Shown in pieces: positions 4,547 to 63,840 of a DNA stretch of 64,000 nucleotides. The DNA comes from Pseudomonadota bacterium (lineage in GTDB: Bacteria; Pseudomonadota; Alphaproteobacteria; Rhodospirillales; Magnetospirillaceae): the NCBI GenBank assembly GCA_021782815.1, contig JAJXUO010000006.1, positions 1 through 64,000 on the forward strand. Reading direction: 5' to 3'. The translations under genes were made by a program, and so were the position numbers. The notes beneath the pieces are model-generated. The model searched no databases, had not been told where the DNA came from, and saw only the letters and a list, made by a program, of their open reading frames with translations. Positions within the stretch are counted from its first letter, which is position 1; every line of letters begins with the position of its first letter.

Positions 4547-5439
4547 CAGCCGCGATGGCGCAGGGCCTCCACCAGCAGGGTGAAGGCCGGTGAGGCCTGG
4601 CGGCGGCTGGGATAATAAAGATGGTAGCCCTGGAAGGGGGCGCACCAGTCGTCCAGCACCCGCACCAGACGGCCGTCGCGCAATGGATCGGCCACCATGT
4701 CGTCGGGGAGATAGGCCAGGCCGAAGCCCTTGAGGGCGGCATCGAGGATCTGGGTGGTGGAACTGAAGATGAGCTGGCCGTCCACATGCACGGTCAAGTC
4801 CTGGCCGTTCTTCTCGAATTCCCAGGGTAACAGGCTTTTATAGGTGGGCAGGCGCAGATTGATGCAGGCATGGCCGGTGAGGTCGCGCGGGGTGCGCGGC
4901 GGCGGCTGGCGGGCGAAATAGGCCGGGGCGGCCACCACCGCCATGCGCAGATCGGGGCCGATGCGCACGGCGATCATATCCTTGGCCACCAGCTCGCCAT
5001 GGCGCACCCCGGCATCGAACCGTTCGGCCACGATATCGGTCAGGCCGTAATCCACCACCACCTCCACCTTGATGTCGGGATAGTCGGGCAGAAAGCGGGC
5101 CAGCTTGGGCCAGAGCAGGCTGTTGGCGGCATGTTCGGCGGTGGTGATGCGGATGGTGCCGGCGGGTTTGTCTCGCAGGGCGCTCACGGCCGCCAGTTCC
5201 GCCTCGATCTCGGCGAATTTCGGGGTCAGACTGTGCAAAAGCCGCTCGCCGGCCTGGGTGGGGGCCAGGCTGCGGGTGGTGCGGGTGAGCAGGCGCAGGC
5301 CCAGGCGGGTTTCCAGGGCGCGGATGGTATGGCTCAGGGCCGAGGGCGTCAGCCCCAGCTGCGCGGCGGCGCGGGTGAAACTTCCGGCGCGCGCCACCGC
5401 CAGAAAGGCTTGCAGATCGTGCAGGGTGTCGCGCGCCAT
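4546..5439 (-). CDS. LysR-family transcriptional regulator
   Basis: 297 residues. The N-terminal winged helix-turn-helix is clear (FLAVARAGSFTRAAAQLGL, then SALSHTIRALETRLGLRLL, residues about 12-60), followed by a substrate-binding domain to the C-terminus. It is transcribed divergently from the aldo/keto reductase at 5544, the classic arrangement in which LysR proteins control their neighbour. Its stop overlaps the start of the nucleosidase gene. The 104-bp divergent region holds an ATGAA/TTCAT dyad. The inducer is unknown. Confidence 0.93.
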   Translation of the reverse strand: MARDTLHDLQAFLAVARAGSFTRAAAQLGLTPSALSHTIRALETRLGLRLLTRTTRSLAPTQAGERLLHSLTPKFAEIEAELAAVSALRDKPAGTIRITTAEHAANSLLWPKLARFLPDYPDIKVEVVVDYGLTDIVAERFDAGVRHGELVAKDMIAVRIGPDLRMAVVAAPAYFARQPPPRTPRDLTGHACINLRLPTYKSLLPWEFEKNGQDLTVHVDGQLIFSSTTQILDAALKGFGLAYLPDDMVADPLRDGRLVRVLDDWCAPFQGYHLYYPSRRQASPAFTLLVEALRHRG

Positions 5440-5441
5440 TG

Positions 5442-6539
<1,098 letters not shown>

Positions 6540-6542
6540 GCG

Positions 6543-6600
6543 TCTCATCCCGGTCGGCACTTGATTTGACCCAACGGGTCAAATCATGCCGAGACGGTAT
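6543..6600. repeat. Short palindromic repeat, family 2, copy 1
   Basis: The core GATTTGACCC (6563-6572) and GGGTCAAATC (6576-6585), with a 3-bp spacer, is nested in a longer imperfect dyad (TCGGCA...TGCCGA). A second copy with the same core and the same CGGTAT edge lies at 47123-47176. It sits between the stop of the aldo/keto reductase and the start of the alcohol dehydrogenase. Confidence 0.75.
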
Positions 6601-6623
6601 CATTAATGAAAGGACCGCACGCC

Positions 6624-7670
6624 ATGACCGTGAAAGCCTACGGCGCCATCGCCAAGGATAAGCCCCTCGAACCCATGACTATTCACCGCCGCGCTCCCGG
6701 TCCGCACGATGTGCAGATCGAGATCGCCTATTGCGGCATCTGCCACTCCGACCTGCACACCGTGCGCTCGGAATGGCCCGGCACCTTGTACCCTTGCGTG
6801 CCGGGGCACGAGATCGTCGGCCATGTCTCGGCGGTGGGCGGCCATGTCAGCCGCTTCAAGGTGGGCGATACCGTGGGGGTGGGCTGCCTGGTGGACAGCT
6901 GCCAGACCTGCCCCTCCTGCGGCGAGGGCCTGGAACAGTTCTGCGAGCACGGCTTCACCGGCACCTATAATTTCCCCACCCCCGATGCACCCGGCCATAC
7001 CCTGGGCGGCTATTCCCAGCGCATCGTGGTCAGCGAAAACTTCGTGCTGAAGATCGGCCATCCGGCGGCGCAGCTGGCGGGGGTGGCGCCGCTCCTGTGC
7101 GCCGGCATCACCACCTATTCGCCGTTGCGGCACTGGCAGGCCGGGCCGGGCAAGAAGGTGGGCGTGGTCGGCATCGGCGGGCTGGGCCATATGGGCATCA
7201 AGCTGGCCCATGCCATGGGGGCGGAAACCGTGGCCTTCACCACCTCGGAGTCCAAACGCCAGGCCGCCCTGGCCTTGGGCGCCGACACCGTGGTGGTTTC
7301 GCGCCATGCCGACGAGATGAAGGCCCATGCCGGCAGTTTTCATTTCATTCTCGATACGGTTGCGGCCAGCCATAACCTCGACGCCTATCTCACCCTGCTG
7401 AAGCGCGACGGCACCCTGTGCCTGGTGGGCGCCCCCGATCACGCCCACCCCTCGCCGGATGTCTTCAACCTGATCCTGGGGCGGCGCGCCATCGCCGGCT
7501 CCCTCATCGGCGGCATCGCCGAAACCCAGGAAATGCTGGATTTCTGCGCCGAGAAGGGCATCGTTTCCGAGATCGAAATGATCACCCCGTCGCAGATCGA
7601 CCAGGCCTACGACCGCATGCAGAAAAGCGACGTCAAATACCGCTTCGTCATGGACATGGCGGCGCTGTAA
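6624..7670 (+). CDS. Zinc-dependent NAD(P) alcohol dehydrogenase, cinnamyl-alcohol/YahK type
   Basis: About 348 residues of the medium-chain dehydrogenase family; reduces aldehydes or oxidises alcohols. CGICHSDLH carries the catalytic zinc ligand Cys near residue 33, and GHEIVGHV the His-Glu pair. The structural-zinc loop has its Cys residues in DSCQTCPSCGEGLEQFCE. GIGGLGHMGIKLAHAMGAE is the Rossmann cofactor loop. I prefer the ATG at 6624, preceded by AAAGGA, over the in-frame ATG at 6606. The stop codon TAA is also the left target duplication of a MITE-like repeat. The pattern matches YahK/AdhC proteins; the substrate is not known. Confidence 0.9.
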   Translation: MTVKAYGAIAKDKPLEPMTIHRRAPGPHDVQIEIAYCGICHSDLHTVRSEWPGTLYPCVPGHEIVGHVSAVGGHVSRFKVGDTVGVGCLVDSCQTCPSCGEGLEQFCEHGFTGTYNFPTPDAPGHTLGGYSQRIVVSENFVLKIGHPAAQLAGVAPLLCAGITTYSPLRHWQAGPGKKVGVVGIGGLGHMGIKLAHAMGAETVAFTTSESKRQAALALGADTVVVSRHADEMKAHAGSFHFILDTVAASHNLDAYLTLLKRDGTLCLVGAPDHAHPSPDVFNLILGRRAIAGSLIGGIAETQEMLDFCAEKGIVSEIEMITPSQIDQAYDRMQKSDVKYRFVMDMAAL

Positions 7671-7818
7671 GAGCAAGTCGCGGTGAGCAGGGCTCATCGC
7701 GACGCCGGTTAGGAGCCAGGCGACGCGCGGCTGAAGCCGCGTTAGGCAAGGGGTCTGGAAGACCCCGTCCGTCGCTTGAGGGACTCCGGTGATCGGGTCC
7801 GATCAACGGGGTTTGGTA
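7671..7818. mobile_element. MITE-like element, copy E (divergent)
   Basis: A 148-bp relative of the TACCAA/TTGGTA family in the orientation of copy C. The left end has decayed to GAGCAA but the right end reads TTTGGTA. It is flanked by TAA (7668-7670, the stop codon of the dehydrogenase) and TAA (7819-7821). Internal hairpins are kept: GTCGCGGTGAG pairs with CTCATCGCGAC, and GGGGTCT with AGACCCC. The sequence between stems differs strongly from the other copies, so it is an old or separate subfamily. Confidence 0.75.
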
Positions 7819-24231: not shown

Positions 24232-24476
24232 GAGTTAAACCTGCTTCAAGGATAAGAGAAATCGGAAGGCGCGTTTATAAGACCGCTTTCGCGCCGGCGT
24301 CAAGGGGCGAATCGTGATTCGCCTCAATCGTTTGGCGGACGATCTTCAGAAAGCCGGGAGAAGGCCGGGAGCGCGCGGCCGGAAACCCTCCGGCGGGGCC
24401 GGGGCGGCGGGTTCTGCAGACTGTGCCGCAGGCCATCCGCGCGGGATGGCGCACAACCTGTTCCAAGGAGGATCCC

Positions 24477-24971
24477 ATGCCCACAGTGACCGTTGGAAAT
24501 TTCGTTCTCGACTACACCTTGCGGACCAATGCCGAACCCGGCAACGATATCCAGTTCGGCATGGACTTCACGGTGCGGCAGAGCAAGTCGCCGTTGCCGT
24601 TGATGCAGCTGATTTATCCGGCCACCAGCGTCGGCACCAACGTGGCCGGCCAGTGGAACGTGGACAACCACCAGGCCCCCGCCAGCGGTGCCCAGTGCCT
24701 GGTGTTCGCCAATGCCGACGGCGGCGTCATCACCGACATTCCCACCGAGCTCAGCAAACGGAACCTGGGCGTGCGGTCGACCAAGTTCGCCATCTACCGG
24801 GTGGATCTCGGCAAGAACGCCGTGCAGGTGGCCGGGGTGACCTTCGGCTACAGCATCGATACCAGCGCCGCGATGCCGATCACCACCTTCACCGCCATGC
24901 AGGCCGTCAGCCTGCCCAACGATCAGAAGCAGGTGGTGTTGGCCAAGTGCGGTTCCGTCAAGTTCCAGTAA
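24477..24971 (+). CDS. Hypothetical beta-rich protein (164 aa)
   Basis: The start at 24477 has a strong AAGGAGG site (about 24465-24471). The 164 residues have no signal peptide and look like mostly beta structure (repeated alternation such as VTVGNFVLDYTLRTN, ITTFTAMQAVSL). No family is recognised. It is a single gene between rpsT and enoyl-CoA hydratase. Its TAA stop is shared with the left target duplication of MITE copy A. Function unknown; the gene call is firm thanks to the ribosome site and codon use. Confidence 0.75.
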   Translation: MPTVTVGNFVLDYTLRTNAEPGNDIQFGMDFTVRQSKSPLPLMQLIYPATSVGTNVAGQWNVDNHQAPASGAQCLVFANADGGVITDIPTELSKRNLGVRSTKFAIYRVDLGKNAVQVAGVTFGYSIDTSAAMPITTFTAMQAVSLPNDQKQVVLAKCGSVKFQ

Positions 24972-25116
24972 TACCAAATTGCAGTGATCGGAACCGATCA
25001 CTGCACCCTCACGCGCCGGGCGGGTTTCTCCGAAACCCTTGGCTTCGCGCCATTAGGCGCGCGTCGCCTTGCTCCTAACCGGCGTCGCGATGAGTCAAAC
25101 TTATCGCGACTTGGTA
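24972..25116. mobile_element. MITE-like element, copy A
   Basis: 145 bp with inverted ends TACCAA/TTGGTA and target duplication TAA (24969-24971 and 25117-25119). It has hairpins near both ends (TGCAGTGATCGG with CCGATCACTGCA; GTCGCGATGAG with a complement carrying one change) and smaller ones inside (GGGTTTC/GAAACCC). It encodes no protein. It starts at the stop codon of the hypothetical gene. Confidence 0.85.
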
Positions 25117-25126
25117 TAAGGCGCCG

Positions 25127-37994: not shown

Positions 37995-38139
37995 TACCAA
38001 ATTGCAGTGATCGGAACCGATCACTGCACCCTCATGCGCCGGGCGGGTTTCTCCGAAACCCTTGGCGTCGTGCCTGATGGCGCGCGTCGCCTTGCTCCTA
38101 ACCGGCGTCGCGATGAGTCAAACTCATCGCGACTTGGTA
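37995..38139. mobile_element. MITE-like element, copy B
   Basis: 145 bp, TACCAA/TTGGTA ends, target duplication TGA (37992-37994 and 38140-38142). It has the same hairpins and nearly the same sequence as copies A and D. It lies in the 5' region of the sensor kinase, the one copy not touching a stop codon of a called gene. Confidence 0.85.
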
Positions 38140-44133: not shown

Positions 44134-44465
44134 GGCGCCTGGTCCTTGCCTCTGGGCGTTGATGTTTAAGGGCTGTCGGCTGGTCAATGGCCTCCGGCCA
44201 ACGGGACCGGCACTATAAAGACCCGCGCGGCTTTTGTCTCCCCGGTTGACGGAGCCATCGAGCGGGCGCGACGGCTCCGGTTTGTTTTATATGCCCCTCA
44301 GGCGCCGGGCGCTGGCGTTCCGCCAGCTTGGCTTGTCGCTTTTGCCTCCGCGCAAGCGCTCCCGGCAACGCTCCGGCGGCCTCAATGGCCTAGTCAGCCG
44401 CATGAAGCGGCTTCCAAGTGTCTCCCCGGTTGACGGCAGGGCTCGGGAGAGCCCATTCTGCCGCC
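44134..44465. other. Divergent region between cbiX and cobD
   Basis: No gene. On the minus strand it holds a possible cbiX promoter (TATAGT, 44212-44217). It also has a 17-bp direct repeat GTCTCCCCGGTTGACGG (44236-44252 and 44420-44436), a GC-rich hairpin (GGAGCC...GGCTCC, about 44251-44278), and an inverted copy of dispersed repeat family 3. Confidence 0.6.
44290..44415 (-). repeat. Dispersed repeat family 3, inverted copy
   Basis: The reverse complement matches the units at 27294-27540 over about 120 bp (shared GACAAGCCAAGCTGGCGG and CGCCAGCGCCCGGCGC). It lies between two 17-bp direct repeats, upstream of cobD. Confidence 0.75.
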
Positions 44466-45741: not shown

Positions 45742-46974
45742 ATGAGTGCGACAGCGACGGGCATGGACGTATTATTCATCTTGCTGGGGGCGGTGATGGT
45801 TCTGGCCATGCATGCCGGATTCGCCTTTCTGGAAGTGGGGACGGTGCGGCGCAAGAATCAGGTCAATGCCCTGGTGAAGATCATCACCGATTTCGCCATG
45901 TCCACCTGCGCCTATTTCTTCATCGGATATTCCGTGGCCTACGGGGTGAACTTCCTGGTGTCGGCCAAGGCCCTGACCGGCGGCGCTCCGGGGCTGTTCG
46001 CGCCCAAGGGCTACGATCTGGTCAAGTTCTTCTTTCTGGCCACCTTCGCCGCCGCCATTCCCGCCATCATCTCGGGCGGCATCGCCGAACGGGCCCGCTT
46101 CTGGCCGCAGATCTGCGCCACCGCCCTGCTCACCGCGCTGTGCTATCCCACCCTGGAAGGCATGATGTGGGGCAGCCGCTTCGGCGTGCAGGCCTGGATG
46201 CTGTCCACCTTCGGGGCGCATTTCCATGATTTCGCCGGCTCGGTGGTGGTGCATGCCTTCGGCGGCTGGGTGGCGCTGGGGGCGGTCAGCCTGTTGGGGC
46301 CGCGCATGGGCCGCTATCGCAAGAACGGCACGGGGGTCAACATTCCGCCGTCCAACATCCCCTTCCTGGCCCTGGGCGCCTGGGTTTTGTCGGTGGGCTG
46401 GTTCGGCTTCAATGTCATGAGCGCCCAGAAGCTGGACGGCATTTCCGGCCTGGTGGCCCTGAATTCGCTGATGGCCATGGTGGGCGGCATTCTGTCGGCC
46501 CTGCTGGTCAGCCGTAACGATCCCGGCTTCATCCATAACGGCGCCCTGGCCGGGCTGGTGGCGGTGTGCGCCGGGTCCGACGTCATGCATCCCCTGGGGG
46601 CGCTGGCCACCGGCGCCATCGCCGGGGTCCTGTTCGTGTGGGGCTTCAACCAGTGTCAGACCAAGTGGAAGATCGACGATGTGCTGGGGGTGTGGCCGCT
46701 GCACGGTTTTTGCGGCGCCTTCGGCGGCATCGCCTGCGGCCTGTTCGGCCAGGAGGCTCTGGGCGGCCTGGGCGGGGTGTCGCTGCCGGCGCAGATCACC
46801 GGCACCCTGCTGGGCGTCGGGATGGCCCTGATCTCGGGCTTCGGCGTTTACGGCCTGCTGCGGGCCACTCTCGGCCTGCGTCTGTCGGAAGAGGACGAAT
46901 TCCGTGGCGCCGATCTGTCGCTGCATCGCATCGGCGCGTATCCGGAAGAGGAGATCACCGGTTACGAGGAGTGA
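45742..46974 (+). CDS. amt: Ammonium transporter (Amt family)
   Basis: 410 residues and 11 membrane helices. GFAFLEVGTVRRKNQVNALVK replaces the usual Amt N-terminal region and no signal peptide is present. The channel's twin histidines are in FHDFAGSVVVHAFGGW and VWPLHGFCGAFGGI. A GGGAGG site lies 10 bases before the ATG. No glnB or glnK partner is adjacent, unlike the usual glnK-amtB pair. The TGA stop is also the left target duplication of MITE copy C. Confidence 0.93.
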   Translation: MSATATGMDVLFILLGAVMVLAMHAGFAFLEVGTVRRKNQVNALVKIITDFAMSTCAYFFIGYSVAYGVNFLVSAKALTGGAPGLFAPKGYDLVKFFFLATFAAAIPAIISGGIAERARFWPQICATALLTALCYPTLEGMMWGSRFGVQAWMLSTFGAHFHDFAGSVVVHAFGGWVALGAVSLLGPRMGRYRKNGTGVNIPPSNIPFLALGAWVLSVGWFGFNVMSAQKLDGISGLVALNSLMAMVGGILSALLVSRNDPGFIHNGALAGLVAVCAGSDVMHPLGALATGAIAGVLFVWGFNQCQTKWKIDDVLGVWPLHGFCGAFGGIACGLFGQEALGGLGGVSLPAQITGTLLGVGMALISGFGVYGLLRATLGLRLSEEDEFRGADLSLHRIGAYPEEEITGYEE

Positions 46975-47119
46975 TACCAAGTCGCGATGAGTTTGACTCA
47001 TCGCGACGCGGGTTAGGAGCAAGGCGACGCGCGCCTGATGGCGCGAAGCCAAGGGTTTCGGAGAAACCCGCCCGGCGCATGAGGGGGCGGTGATCGGTTC
47101 CGATCACCGCAATTCGGTA
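46975..47119. mobile_element. MITE-like element, copy C (opposite orientation)
   Basis: 145 bp, reverse orientation relative to A, B and D, ends TACCAA/TCGGTA, target duplication TGA (46972-46974, the amt stop; and 47120-47122). Its 24-bp end hairpin reads GCGGTGATCGG/CCGATCACCGC: both arms changed together relative to copy A, so pairing is kept. Confidence 0.85.
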
Positions 47120-47122
47120 TGA

Positions 47123-47176
47123 GACCGGTCGGCCCTTGATTTGACCCGACGGGTCAAATCATTGGCCGGGCGGTAT
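47123..47176. repeat. Short palindromic repeat, family 2, copy 2
   Basis: GATTTGACCC (47138-47147) and GGGTCAAATC (47151-47160) with a 3-bp spacer and flanking partial dyad, as at 6543-6600. It lies directly beside MITE copy C and overlaps the 3' end of rimI. Confidence 0.75.
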
Positions 47177-47606
47177 GGTCGACGCCAAGATCCTTGCGCA
47201 GCACCAGGGCATCGGTGACGCCTCCGTAATAACGGGGGCGCCGTCCCACCGTGTGAAAGCCGTGGGCGGCGTAGAGGGCCTGTCCGGCGGCATTGTCGGC
47301 CGCCACTTCCAGAAACAGGGCGGCGGCGCCCCGAACCCGGGCCTCGGCGGCGGCGGCGGCCAGCAGGCGGGCGCCGAGACCGGCGCGGCGGTAGGGCGGC
47401 AGCACCAGGATGGTCAGCACCTCGGCCTCGTCGGCGGCGGCGCGGCAGAGCACGAACCCTTCCGGCCGCGCCTCTCCCGCCAGGAAGCCGTAACTGCCGG
47501 GCAGGGCCAGCAGATCGGCCATGGCCTTGGCGTCCCAGGGTTCCTTGAAACAGACGTGATGCATGCCGGCCATCAGCGCGGCATGGGCCGGGGAGAGCGG
47601 CGTCAT
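47154..47606 (-). CDS. rimI: Ribosomal protein S18 alanine N-acetyltransferase-like GNAT protein
   Basis: 150 residues of the GNAT fold. LTILVLPPYRRAGLGARLL is the acetyl-CoA loop (motif A), and AALFLEVAADNAAGQALYAAHGF is the RimI-like end. RimI acetylates the N-terminal Ala of S18. It overlaps tsaB by 4 bp, the common tsaB-rimI pairing. The last seven or so residues and the TGA stop come from the palindromic repeat, so the native C-terminus was probably replaced. The start at 47606 is set by the overlap. Confidence 0.88.
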   Translation of the reverse strand: MTPLSPAHAALMAGMHHVCFKEPWDAKAMADLLALPGSYGFLAGEARPEGFVLCRAAADEAEVLTILVLPPYRRAGLGARLLAAAAAEARVRGAAALFLEVAADNAAGQALYAAHGFHTVGRRPRYYGGVTDALVLRKDLGVDHTARPMI

Positions 47607-63695: not shown

Positions 63696-63840
63696 TACCA
63701 AATTGCAGTGATCGGAACCGATCGCTGCACCCTCATACGCCGGGCGGGTTTCTCCGAAACCCTTGGCTTCGCGCCATCAGGCGCGCGTCGCCTTGCTCCT
63801 AACCGGCGTCGCGATGAGTCAAACTCATCGCGACTTGGTA
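63696..63840. mobile_element. MITE-like element, copy D
   Basis: 145 bp, TACCAA/TTGGTA ends, target duplication TTA (63693-63695 and 63841-63843). The right TTA is the reverse complement of the TAA stop of the cytochrome b561 gene. It lies inside the probable b561-yceI operon, directly before the yceI ribosome site. Confidence 0.85.

What the first reader, a model, noticed from the sequence alone, without database searches (positions are those of the whole stretch)
24969..25119. A 145-bp MITE-like family with 3-bp TNA target duplications
Full copies: 24972-25116 (TAA), 37995-38139 (TGA), 46975-47119 (TGA), 63696-63840 (TTA) and a divergent one at 7671-7818 (TAA). Each has TACCAA/TTGGTA-type ends, and the 3-bp flanks match on both sides while differing between copies, so they are true duplications. 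TNA duplications of 3 bp are known for the IS1031 group of the IS5 family, a possible mobiliser.
Basis: seen in the sequence. Interest (0 to 1): 0.75.

Follow-up and report, generated by a model that had tools for sequence, protein, structure and literature searches.

The report
Stop-codon-loving mini-transposon of an IS630
A 145-bp non-coding mini-transposon, present in over a hundred copies in a Magnetospirillum-like bacterium, duplicates three bases (TNA) when it inserts, often lands exactly on gene stop codons, is probably moved by an IS630-type transposase, and has itself become the landing site of a probably RNA-guided IS110 element.

Summary
In detail: all five copies are at the stated places with matching TNA flanks. 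The genome holds 155 core matches. Of 66 complete copies examined, 56 have identical 3-bp flanks, all TNA (shuffles average 22). Sister genome G001 shows one clean empty site with a single TNA. The proposed mobiliser, IS1031 of IS5, is not supported: the IS5-type genes found here show no such ends, whereas IS630-family elements of Alphaproteobacteria have TACC...GGTA ends and identical TNA flanks in 25 of 53 loci. In relative G036 the best pair of IS630 and MITE ends agrees at 16 of 18 bases (range 12-16). Two genes split by such IS630s read through only if exactly 3 bp were duplicated, not the textbook TA. Twenty-six of 54 copies sit exactly on a called stop codon, against 46 of 440 non-coding TNA sites; TAA/TGA are TNA, so insertion rebuilds the stop. 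At least four copies carry an IS110 whose non-coding end holds a 7-nt guide matching the MITE core. A 3-bp repeat at IS630 elements is in print in passing; this MITE family was not found in print.

The parts
24969..24971 (+). left target duplication TAA; also the stop codon of the ORF 24423-24971
24972..25116 (+). MITE copy 1, 145 bp, ends TACCAA...TTGGTA
24980..25005 (+). left sub-terminal hairpin TGCAGTGATCG/CGATCACTGCA; pairing kept by double changes across subfamilies
25058..25080 (+). conserved interior core CGCGCGTCGCCTTGCTCCTAACC; in other copies the target of an IS110 element (junction at GCTC/CTAACC, here about 25074/25075; CTA, i.e. TAG on the other strand, stands at both junctions)
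25084..25110 (+). right sub-terminal hairpin GTCGCGATGAGT/ACTTATCGCGAC
25117..25119 (+). right target duplication TAA
37995..38139 (+). MITE copy 2, TGA/TGA; intergenic, not on a called stop codon
46975..47119 (-). MITE copy 3, TGA/TGA; left TGA is the stop codon of an ammonium transporter gene (45742-46974)
63696..63840 (+). MITE copy 4, TTA/TTA; right TTA is the stop codon (TAA on the minus strand) of a cytochrome b561 gene; empty in G001 with a single TNA
7671..7818 (-). divergent MITE copy 5 (148 bp, one end degenerate), TAA/TAA; left TAA is the stop codon of a zinc alcohol dehydrogenase gene (6606-7670)

Best explanation
A non-autonomous element (MITE) mobilised in trans by an IS630-family transposase of a group, common in Alphaproteobacteria, that differs from textbook IS630: its ends begin TACC and it makes a staggered cut at TNA, duplicating 3 bp instead of TA. 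Shown: the TNA duplication (56 of 66 copies, one clean empty site), ends shared with IS630 elements that have the same TNA flanks, and a reading-frame test of the 3-bp rule on two genes split by such IS630s. Because TAA and TGA (and TTA/TCA for the other strand) are all TNA, an insertion at a stop codon rebuilds the stop; half of the non-coding copies sit exactly there. Inferred: movement in trans by this very group, and that copies survive at stop codons mainly because they are harmless there. A second mobile element, an IS110 with a bridge-RNA-like guide matching the MITE core, uses the MITE as its landing site.
For: TNA flanks identical in 56 of 66; empty site in G001. Contigs C38 and C56 of this genome begin inside an element with ends TACCAACCTGCACTGA; in IS orientation both outer flanks read TAA, so they could be the two ends of one copy. 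C56 carries 34 aa that match the end of the Sphingobium IS630 transposase at 22 of 33. 25 of 53 IS630 loci have TACC ends and identical TNA flanks (TACC was required by the search, the TNA identity was not). In G036, which has 16 MITE cores, the IS630 of L227 (1165 bp, TTA/TTA; NF033545 match) agrees with the G036 MITE right end at 16 of 18 bases, with the 148-bp MITE left end at 16 and the 145-bp MITE right end at 15; all ten L227 end pairs compared lie at 12-16. Two genes split by such IS630s (L268 LacI, L260 ABC permease) stay in frame only with a 3-bp duplication. PF13358 and NF033545 matches for the Sphingobium element. Stop-codon excess 26 of 52 non-coding copies against 46 of 440 sites. 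IS110 guide: 7-nt match to its own target in 3 of 3 elements, at most 4 when swapped.
Against: No complete IS630 of this group is assembled in this genome: a protein search found none, and the two contig-end fragments match the 145-bp MITE ends at only 12-14 of 18. The 34-aa fragment alone gave no NCBIfam match. Ten of 66 copies have non-identical flanks. Only one empty site is clean. Of 53 IS630 loci, 5 have a TACC pair with non-identical flanks (L231, L234, L242, L269, L271) and in 23 no pair was found. The 16 of 18 agreement is the best of several pairs.
Confidence: 0.86

Rival explanations
1. The MITE is moved by an IS5-family element of the IS1031 group.
For: IS5-type genes exist in the genome.
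Against: No TACC...GGTA pair with TNA flanks around the PF01609 loci, also with longer stretches for two of them; the PF13340 element has other ends; no PF13586 match. The draft assembly is incomplete, so absence is not proof.
Confidence: 0.05
2. Ordinary IS630 chemistry: the duplication is TA, the element is CCAA...TTGG, and the target is TNATATNA.
For: TA lies next to CCAA/TTGG in the good copies; TA is the rule for ISY100 (PMC2170065, passages).
Against: The G001 empty site is CCTTCAGAGC, without TATNA; both split genes lose the frame under this model.
Confidence: 0.02
3. The elements are REP/BIME-like hairpins spread by a RAYT (Y1) transposase.
For: Palindromic ends, intergenic location, two 39-bp single-hairpin forms (L070, L084), target of an IS110 as REPs are.
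Against: 3-bp duplications that vary together on both sides, and terminal inverted repeats shared with a DDE transposon. RAYT genes were not searched for.
Confidence: 0.03
4. The stop-codon excess is active targeting (a wider target motif, or coupling to the 3' end of genes), not only survival of harmless insertions.
For: Stop codons are favoured even over TNA within 60 bp downstream (26:11 against 46:67, odds 3.4, p 0.0016); pooled target sites show A/T at N in 80% against 16% and G at -3 in 54% against 27% of all TNA sites of the window. Three of 17 plasmid IS630s with ends lie exactly on an annotated stop codon.
Against: Selection against other sites gives the same picture; sites just downstream of genes are also enriched (11 of 26 against 67 of 394, p 0.003); gene calls are my own and the background is one 64-kb window.
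Confidence: 0.3

Closest known systems
IS630 family / Tc1-mariner (ISY100, PMC2170065, passages)
   Same: DDE_3 transposase, ~1.1-1.2 kb here, short inverted repeats
   Different: duplicates TNA (3 bp), ends begin TACC; ISY100 duplicates TA
IS630-type ISDrpg7/8 of Deinococcus radiopugnans (PMC10017437, passages)
   Same: reported 3-nt direct repeats TGA/TAA/TCA; inverted repeat begins TAC
   Different: inverted repeat TACGGACTCCGATTAA; no MITE and no stop-codon analysis in the passages seen
Tourist MITEs of PIF/Harbinger, and IS1031 of IS5 (recalled, no call)
   Same: 3-bp T-N-A duplications, high copy number
   Different: transposase of the IS5 lineage; here IS630
REP elements and IS621/IS110 (PMC11208160, passages)
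   Same: hairpin repeats used as RNA-guided IS110 targets
   Different: here the target is a MITE with target duplications

Membership tests
MITE | short, no transposase gene, terminal inverted repeats, multi-copy | tested here: met
   101-199 bp among 66 complete copies, TACCAA/TTGGTA, 155 core matches
MITE | target duplication and empty sites | tested here: met
   56 of 66 identical TNA; one clean empty site in G001, a second site inconclusive
MITE | ends shared with an autonomous element in the same genome | tested here: inconclusive
   own IS630 fragments 12-14 of 18 with the 145-bp form; relative G036 up to 16 of 18
IS630 family (the mobiliser) | IS630-type DDE transposase | tested here: met
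   PF13358 over its cut-off; NF033545 matches of both ORF halves, each under the whole-protein cut-off of 100 bits
IS630 family (the mobiliser) | 2-bp TA duplication | tested here: not met
   TNA, 3 bp; flanks and frame test
IS1031 group of IS5 | IS5-type transposase with matching ends in the genome | tested here: not met
   draft genome, not every IS5 profile searched
REP/BIME with RAYT | no target duplication | tested here: not met
   duplication present
REP/BIME with RAYT | RAYT gene in the genome | not tested
   no search made
IS110 (parasite of the MITE) | DEDD transposase | tested here: met
   PF01548, PF02371, NF033542
IS110 (parasite of the MITE) | bridge RNA with left and right target guides | tested here: inconclusive
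   left guide 7 nt in 3 of 3; right guide not identified

The most novel reading that the evidence does not exclude
A lineage of IS630 transposases has changed its stagger from TA to TNA and thereby made stop codons its natural, self-repairing targets; its MITEs decorate gene ends genome-wide with conserved hairpins, and an RNA-guided IS110 has in turn programmed itself onto these MITEs, giving a two-tier system of harmless insertion.
Probability: 0.3. Interest if true: 0.72.

Novelty: new variant of a known kind. Interest (0 to 1): 0.55.

Why it matters
A 3-bp target rule inside a superfamily known for its 2-bp (TA) rule lets one ask how the stagger is set. The coincidence of TNA with stop codons is a simple, testable way for a transposon to insert next to needed genes without harm. 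The IS110 that reads the MITE as an address gives a natural example of a guide following another mobile element.

Tried and rejected
Autonomous IS5/IS1031 partner: searched by PF01609, PF13340, PF13586 and by ends; not supported. The repeat in which contigs C72 and C79 end and C41, C30 and C71 begin first looked like the autonomous partner because it shares the MITE's last 42 bp; it is an IS110 inserted inside the MITE. Rfam: no family at gathering score in the window. Plasmid blastn with the MITE or with the IS110/MITE junction: no match. A first end pattern with wrong spacing found one place only. A general inverted-repeat search around IS630 genes gave mostly noise and was replaced by a search that requires TACC ends, so IS630s with other ends would be missed. 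Copy 46975 as an empty site: inconclusive. Paper searches for IS1031/TNA MITEs, MITEs in Magnetospirillum, IS5 groups, MITE plus stop codon, IS630 plus TNA, IS630 plus 3 bp, IS630 plus TA, IS630 plus stop codon and IS630 in Paracoccus listed no paper that I recognised as describing this family; of the listings I read passages of three papers, and most subscription papers are not held.

Full report
Observation. The window lies on contig 58 of a 3.44-Mb draft genome in 118 contigs. The interior core has 155 matches at up to 1 mismatch in this genome; 3 of the 98 other genomes in the relatives set have it (16, 4 and 1 matches), and the same-genus G001 has none. In a class-wide sample 1 of 384 other genomes has a single match. 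Diverged relatives (about 75-82% identity to the copy at 46975) also appear in G002, G010 and G036, so the exact-core counts understate the spread.

Duplications. Of 66 distinct complete copies, 56 have identical 3-bp flanks, all TNA; the shuffle mean is 22.3 and the maximum 38 of 20,000. Of the ten others six are TNA on both sides with different N, three of these because copies stand head to tail on a shared TNA (L085, L096 twice); four are not TNA pairs. G001, about 90% identical in DNA, has the empty form of copy 63696 with a single TNA; the site of copy 46975 is empty too but too different to read.

Anatomy. Each end has a 6-bp inverted repeat followed by a hairpin; the interior has two more hairpins and a conserved core. 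The RNA fold of copy 1 is -74.3 kcal/mol, z -7.9. Over 47 distinct rows, pairs of the left, right and two inner hairpins change on both sides while staying paired in 55, 32, 39 and 18 cells and are broken in 30, 28, 9 and 0; the 6 pairs of the terminal repeat have 2 and 23, and the 8 remaining pairs of the fold have 0 double changes and 56 breaks. The alignment was not fitted to the structure, but the structure comes from one of its rows. Complete copies measure 101 to 199 bp, mostly 145-148 and 172, the longer ones by a 27-bp module; two 39-bp single-hairpin forms have non-identical TNA flanks.

Mobiliser. Contigs 38 and 56 begin inside an element with ends TACCAACCTGCACTGA; in the orientation of the IS both outer flanks are TAA, and the two pieces hold ten residues of the start and 34 of the end of an IS630-type transposase. 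Searches of plasmids and relatives brought 53 IS630 loci that I analysed: 25 have TACC ends with identical TNA flanks, 5 have such ends with non-identical flanks, and in 23 no pair was found (a 54th, L272, was dropped). In G036, which has the MITE, the IS630 of L227 is flanked TTA/TTA and its left end agrees with the MITE right end at 16 of 18 bases (other pairs 12-16). For L268 (LacI) and L260 (ABC permease), leaving out the element and 3 bp gives an open gene, while the TA model gives stops. ISY100 duplicates TA (PMC2170065, passages); one Halomonas element duplicates TTAA and its authors say related elements duplicate only TA (PMC3606827, passages); Deinococcus IS630 members with TGA/TAA/TCA repeats are mentioned in PMC10017437 (passages). 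So the 3-bp rule is not wholly unreported.

Stop codons. With a codon-usage gene caller trained on the window, 54 copies with usable flanks (2 of 56 dropped for short flanks) divide into 26 exactly on a stop codon, 11 within 60 bp downstream of a gene, 15 other intergenic and 2 coding. Non-coding TNA sites in the pre-insertion window divide into 46, 67 and 327. The excess holds for TWA sites (19 of 41 against 13 of 128) and for TSA sites (7 of 11 against 33 of 312). In the window four of five copies lie on a stop codon: of an ammonium transporter, a zinc alcohol dehydrogenase, a cytochrome b561 and an ORF without a Pfam match. Among 17 plasmid IS630s with ends, three lie on annotated stops (LysR, mobile mystery protein B, HipA); the plasmid gene table is incomplete.

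IS110. Contigs 72 and 79 end, and contigs 41, 30 and 71 begin, inside an IS110-family element inserted in the MITE core at GGTTAG/GAGC. Four of them show a left junction with the MITE, so at least four copies are occupied. The non-coding left end has CGGTTAG, identical to the left target; the relatives in G036 and G001 have CAAGTAG and GTATCAG at the homologous place, each identical to its own target, and no guide matches another target, read from the core, over more than 4 nt. This fits the left target guide of bridge RNAs (PMC11208160, passages); no convincing right guide was found. In G001 the IS110 target is the end of another TNA-flanked hairpin element.

Verdict. An ordinary kind of object (a MITE) with an uncommon target rule, a clear stop-codon bias and a probably RNA-guided parasite.

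Noticed in passing
window 44285-44421: Another repeat family (more than 30 matches in G001, partly in tandem) that shares the module CCCTCANGCGCCGGGCG-hairpin-CTTGGCT with the interior of the MITE.
   Followed up: partly
window 6545-6612 and 47120-47182: Short palindromic elements of the type [T]ACCGGTCGGC...GGTA, the first with TCA on both sides: possibly a second small TNA family; the one at 47120 abuts MITE copy 3.
   Followed up: partly
L138, L129, L130, L144, L146 (G010, G003): Miniature IS110 derivatives (TAG|CCGCCCACCGGCG...GTTTCTTTC|TAG in L138), L138 placed on what looks like a TAG stop codon.
   Followed up: no
L133 (G001): An IS110 relative inserted at the end of a different TNA-flanked hairpin element (TCA-TACCGGCC...GGTA-TCA).
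   Followed up: partly
L125, L126, L200 (starts of contigs 94, 106, 118): Multi-copy IS5-type element with a GGCCGTGAACTCATAA end that breaks the assembly.
   Followed up: no
L054 (Aurantimonas MAG) 5328-5470: A lone diverged relative with TAA-TACCAACCTGCGGTGA at one end, in a genome of another order by its label.
   Followed up: no
L078, L083, L107, L114 and others: 27-bp module GTGCCTGATGGCGCGCTTTGCCTCACC added once or twice (25 bp in L078) inside the MITE, giving 172-199 bp forms.
   Followed up: partly
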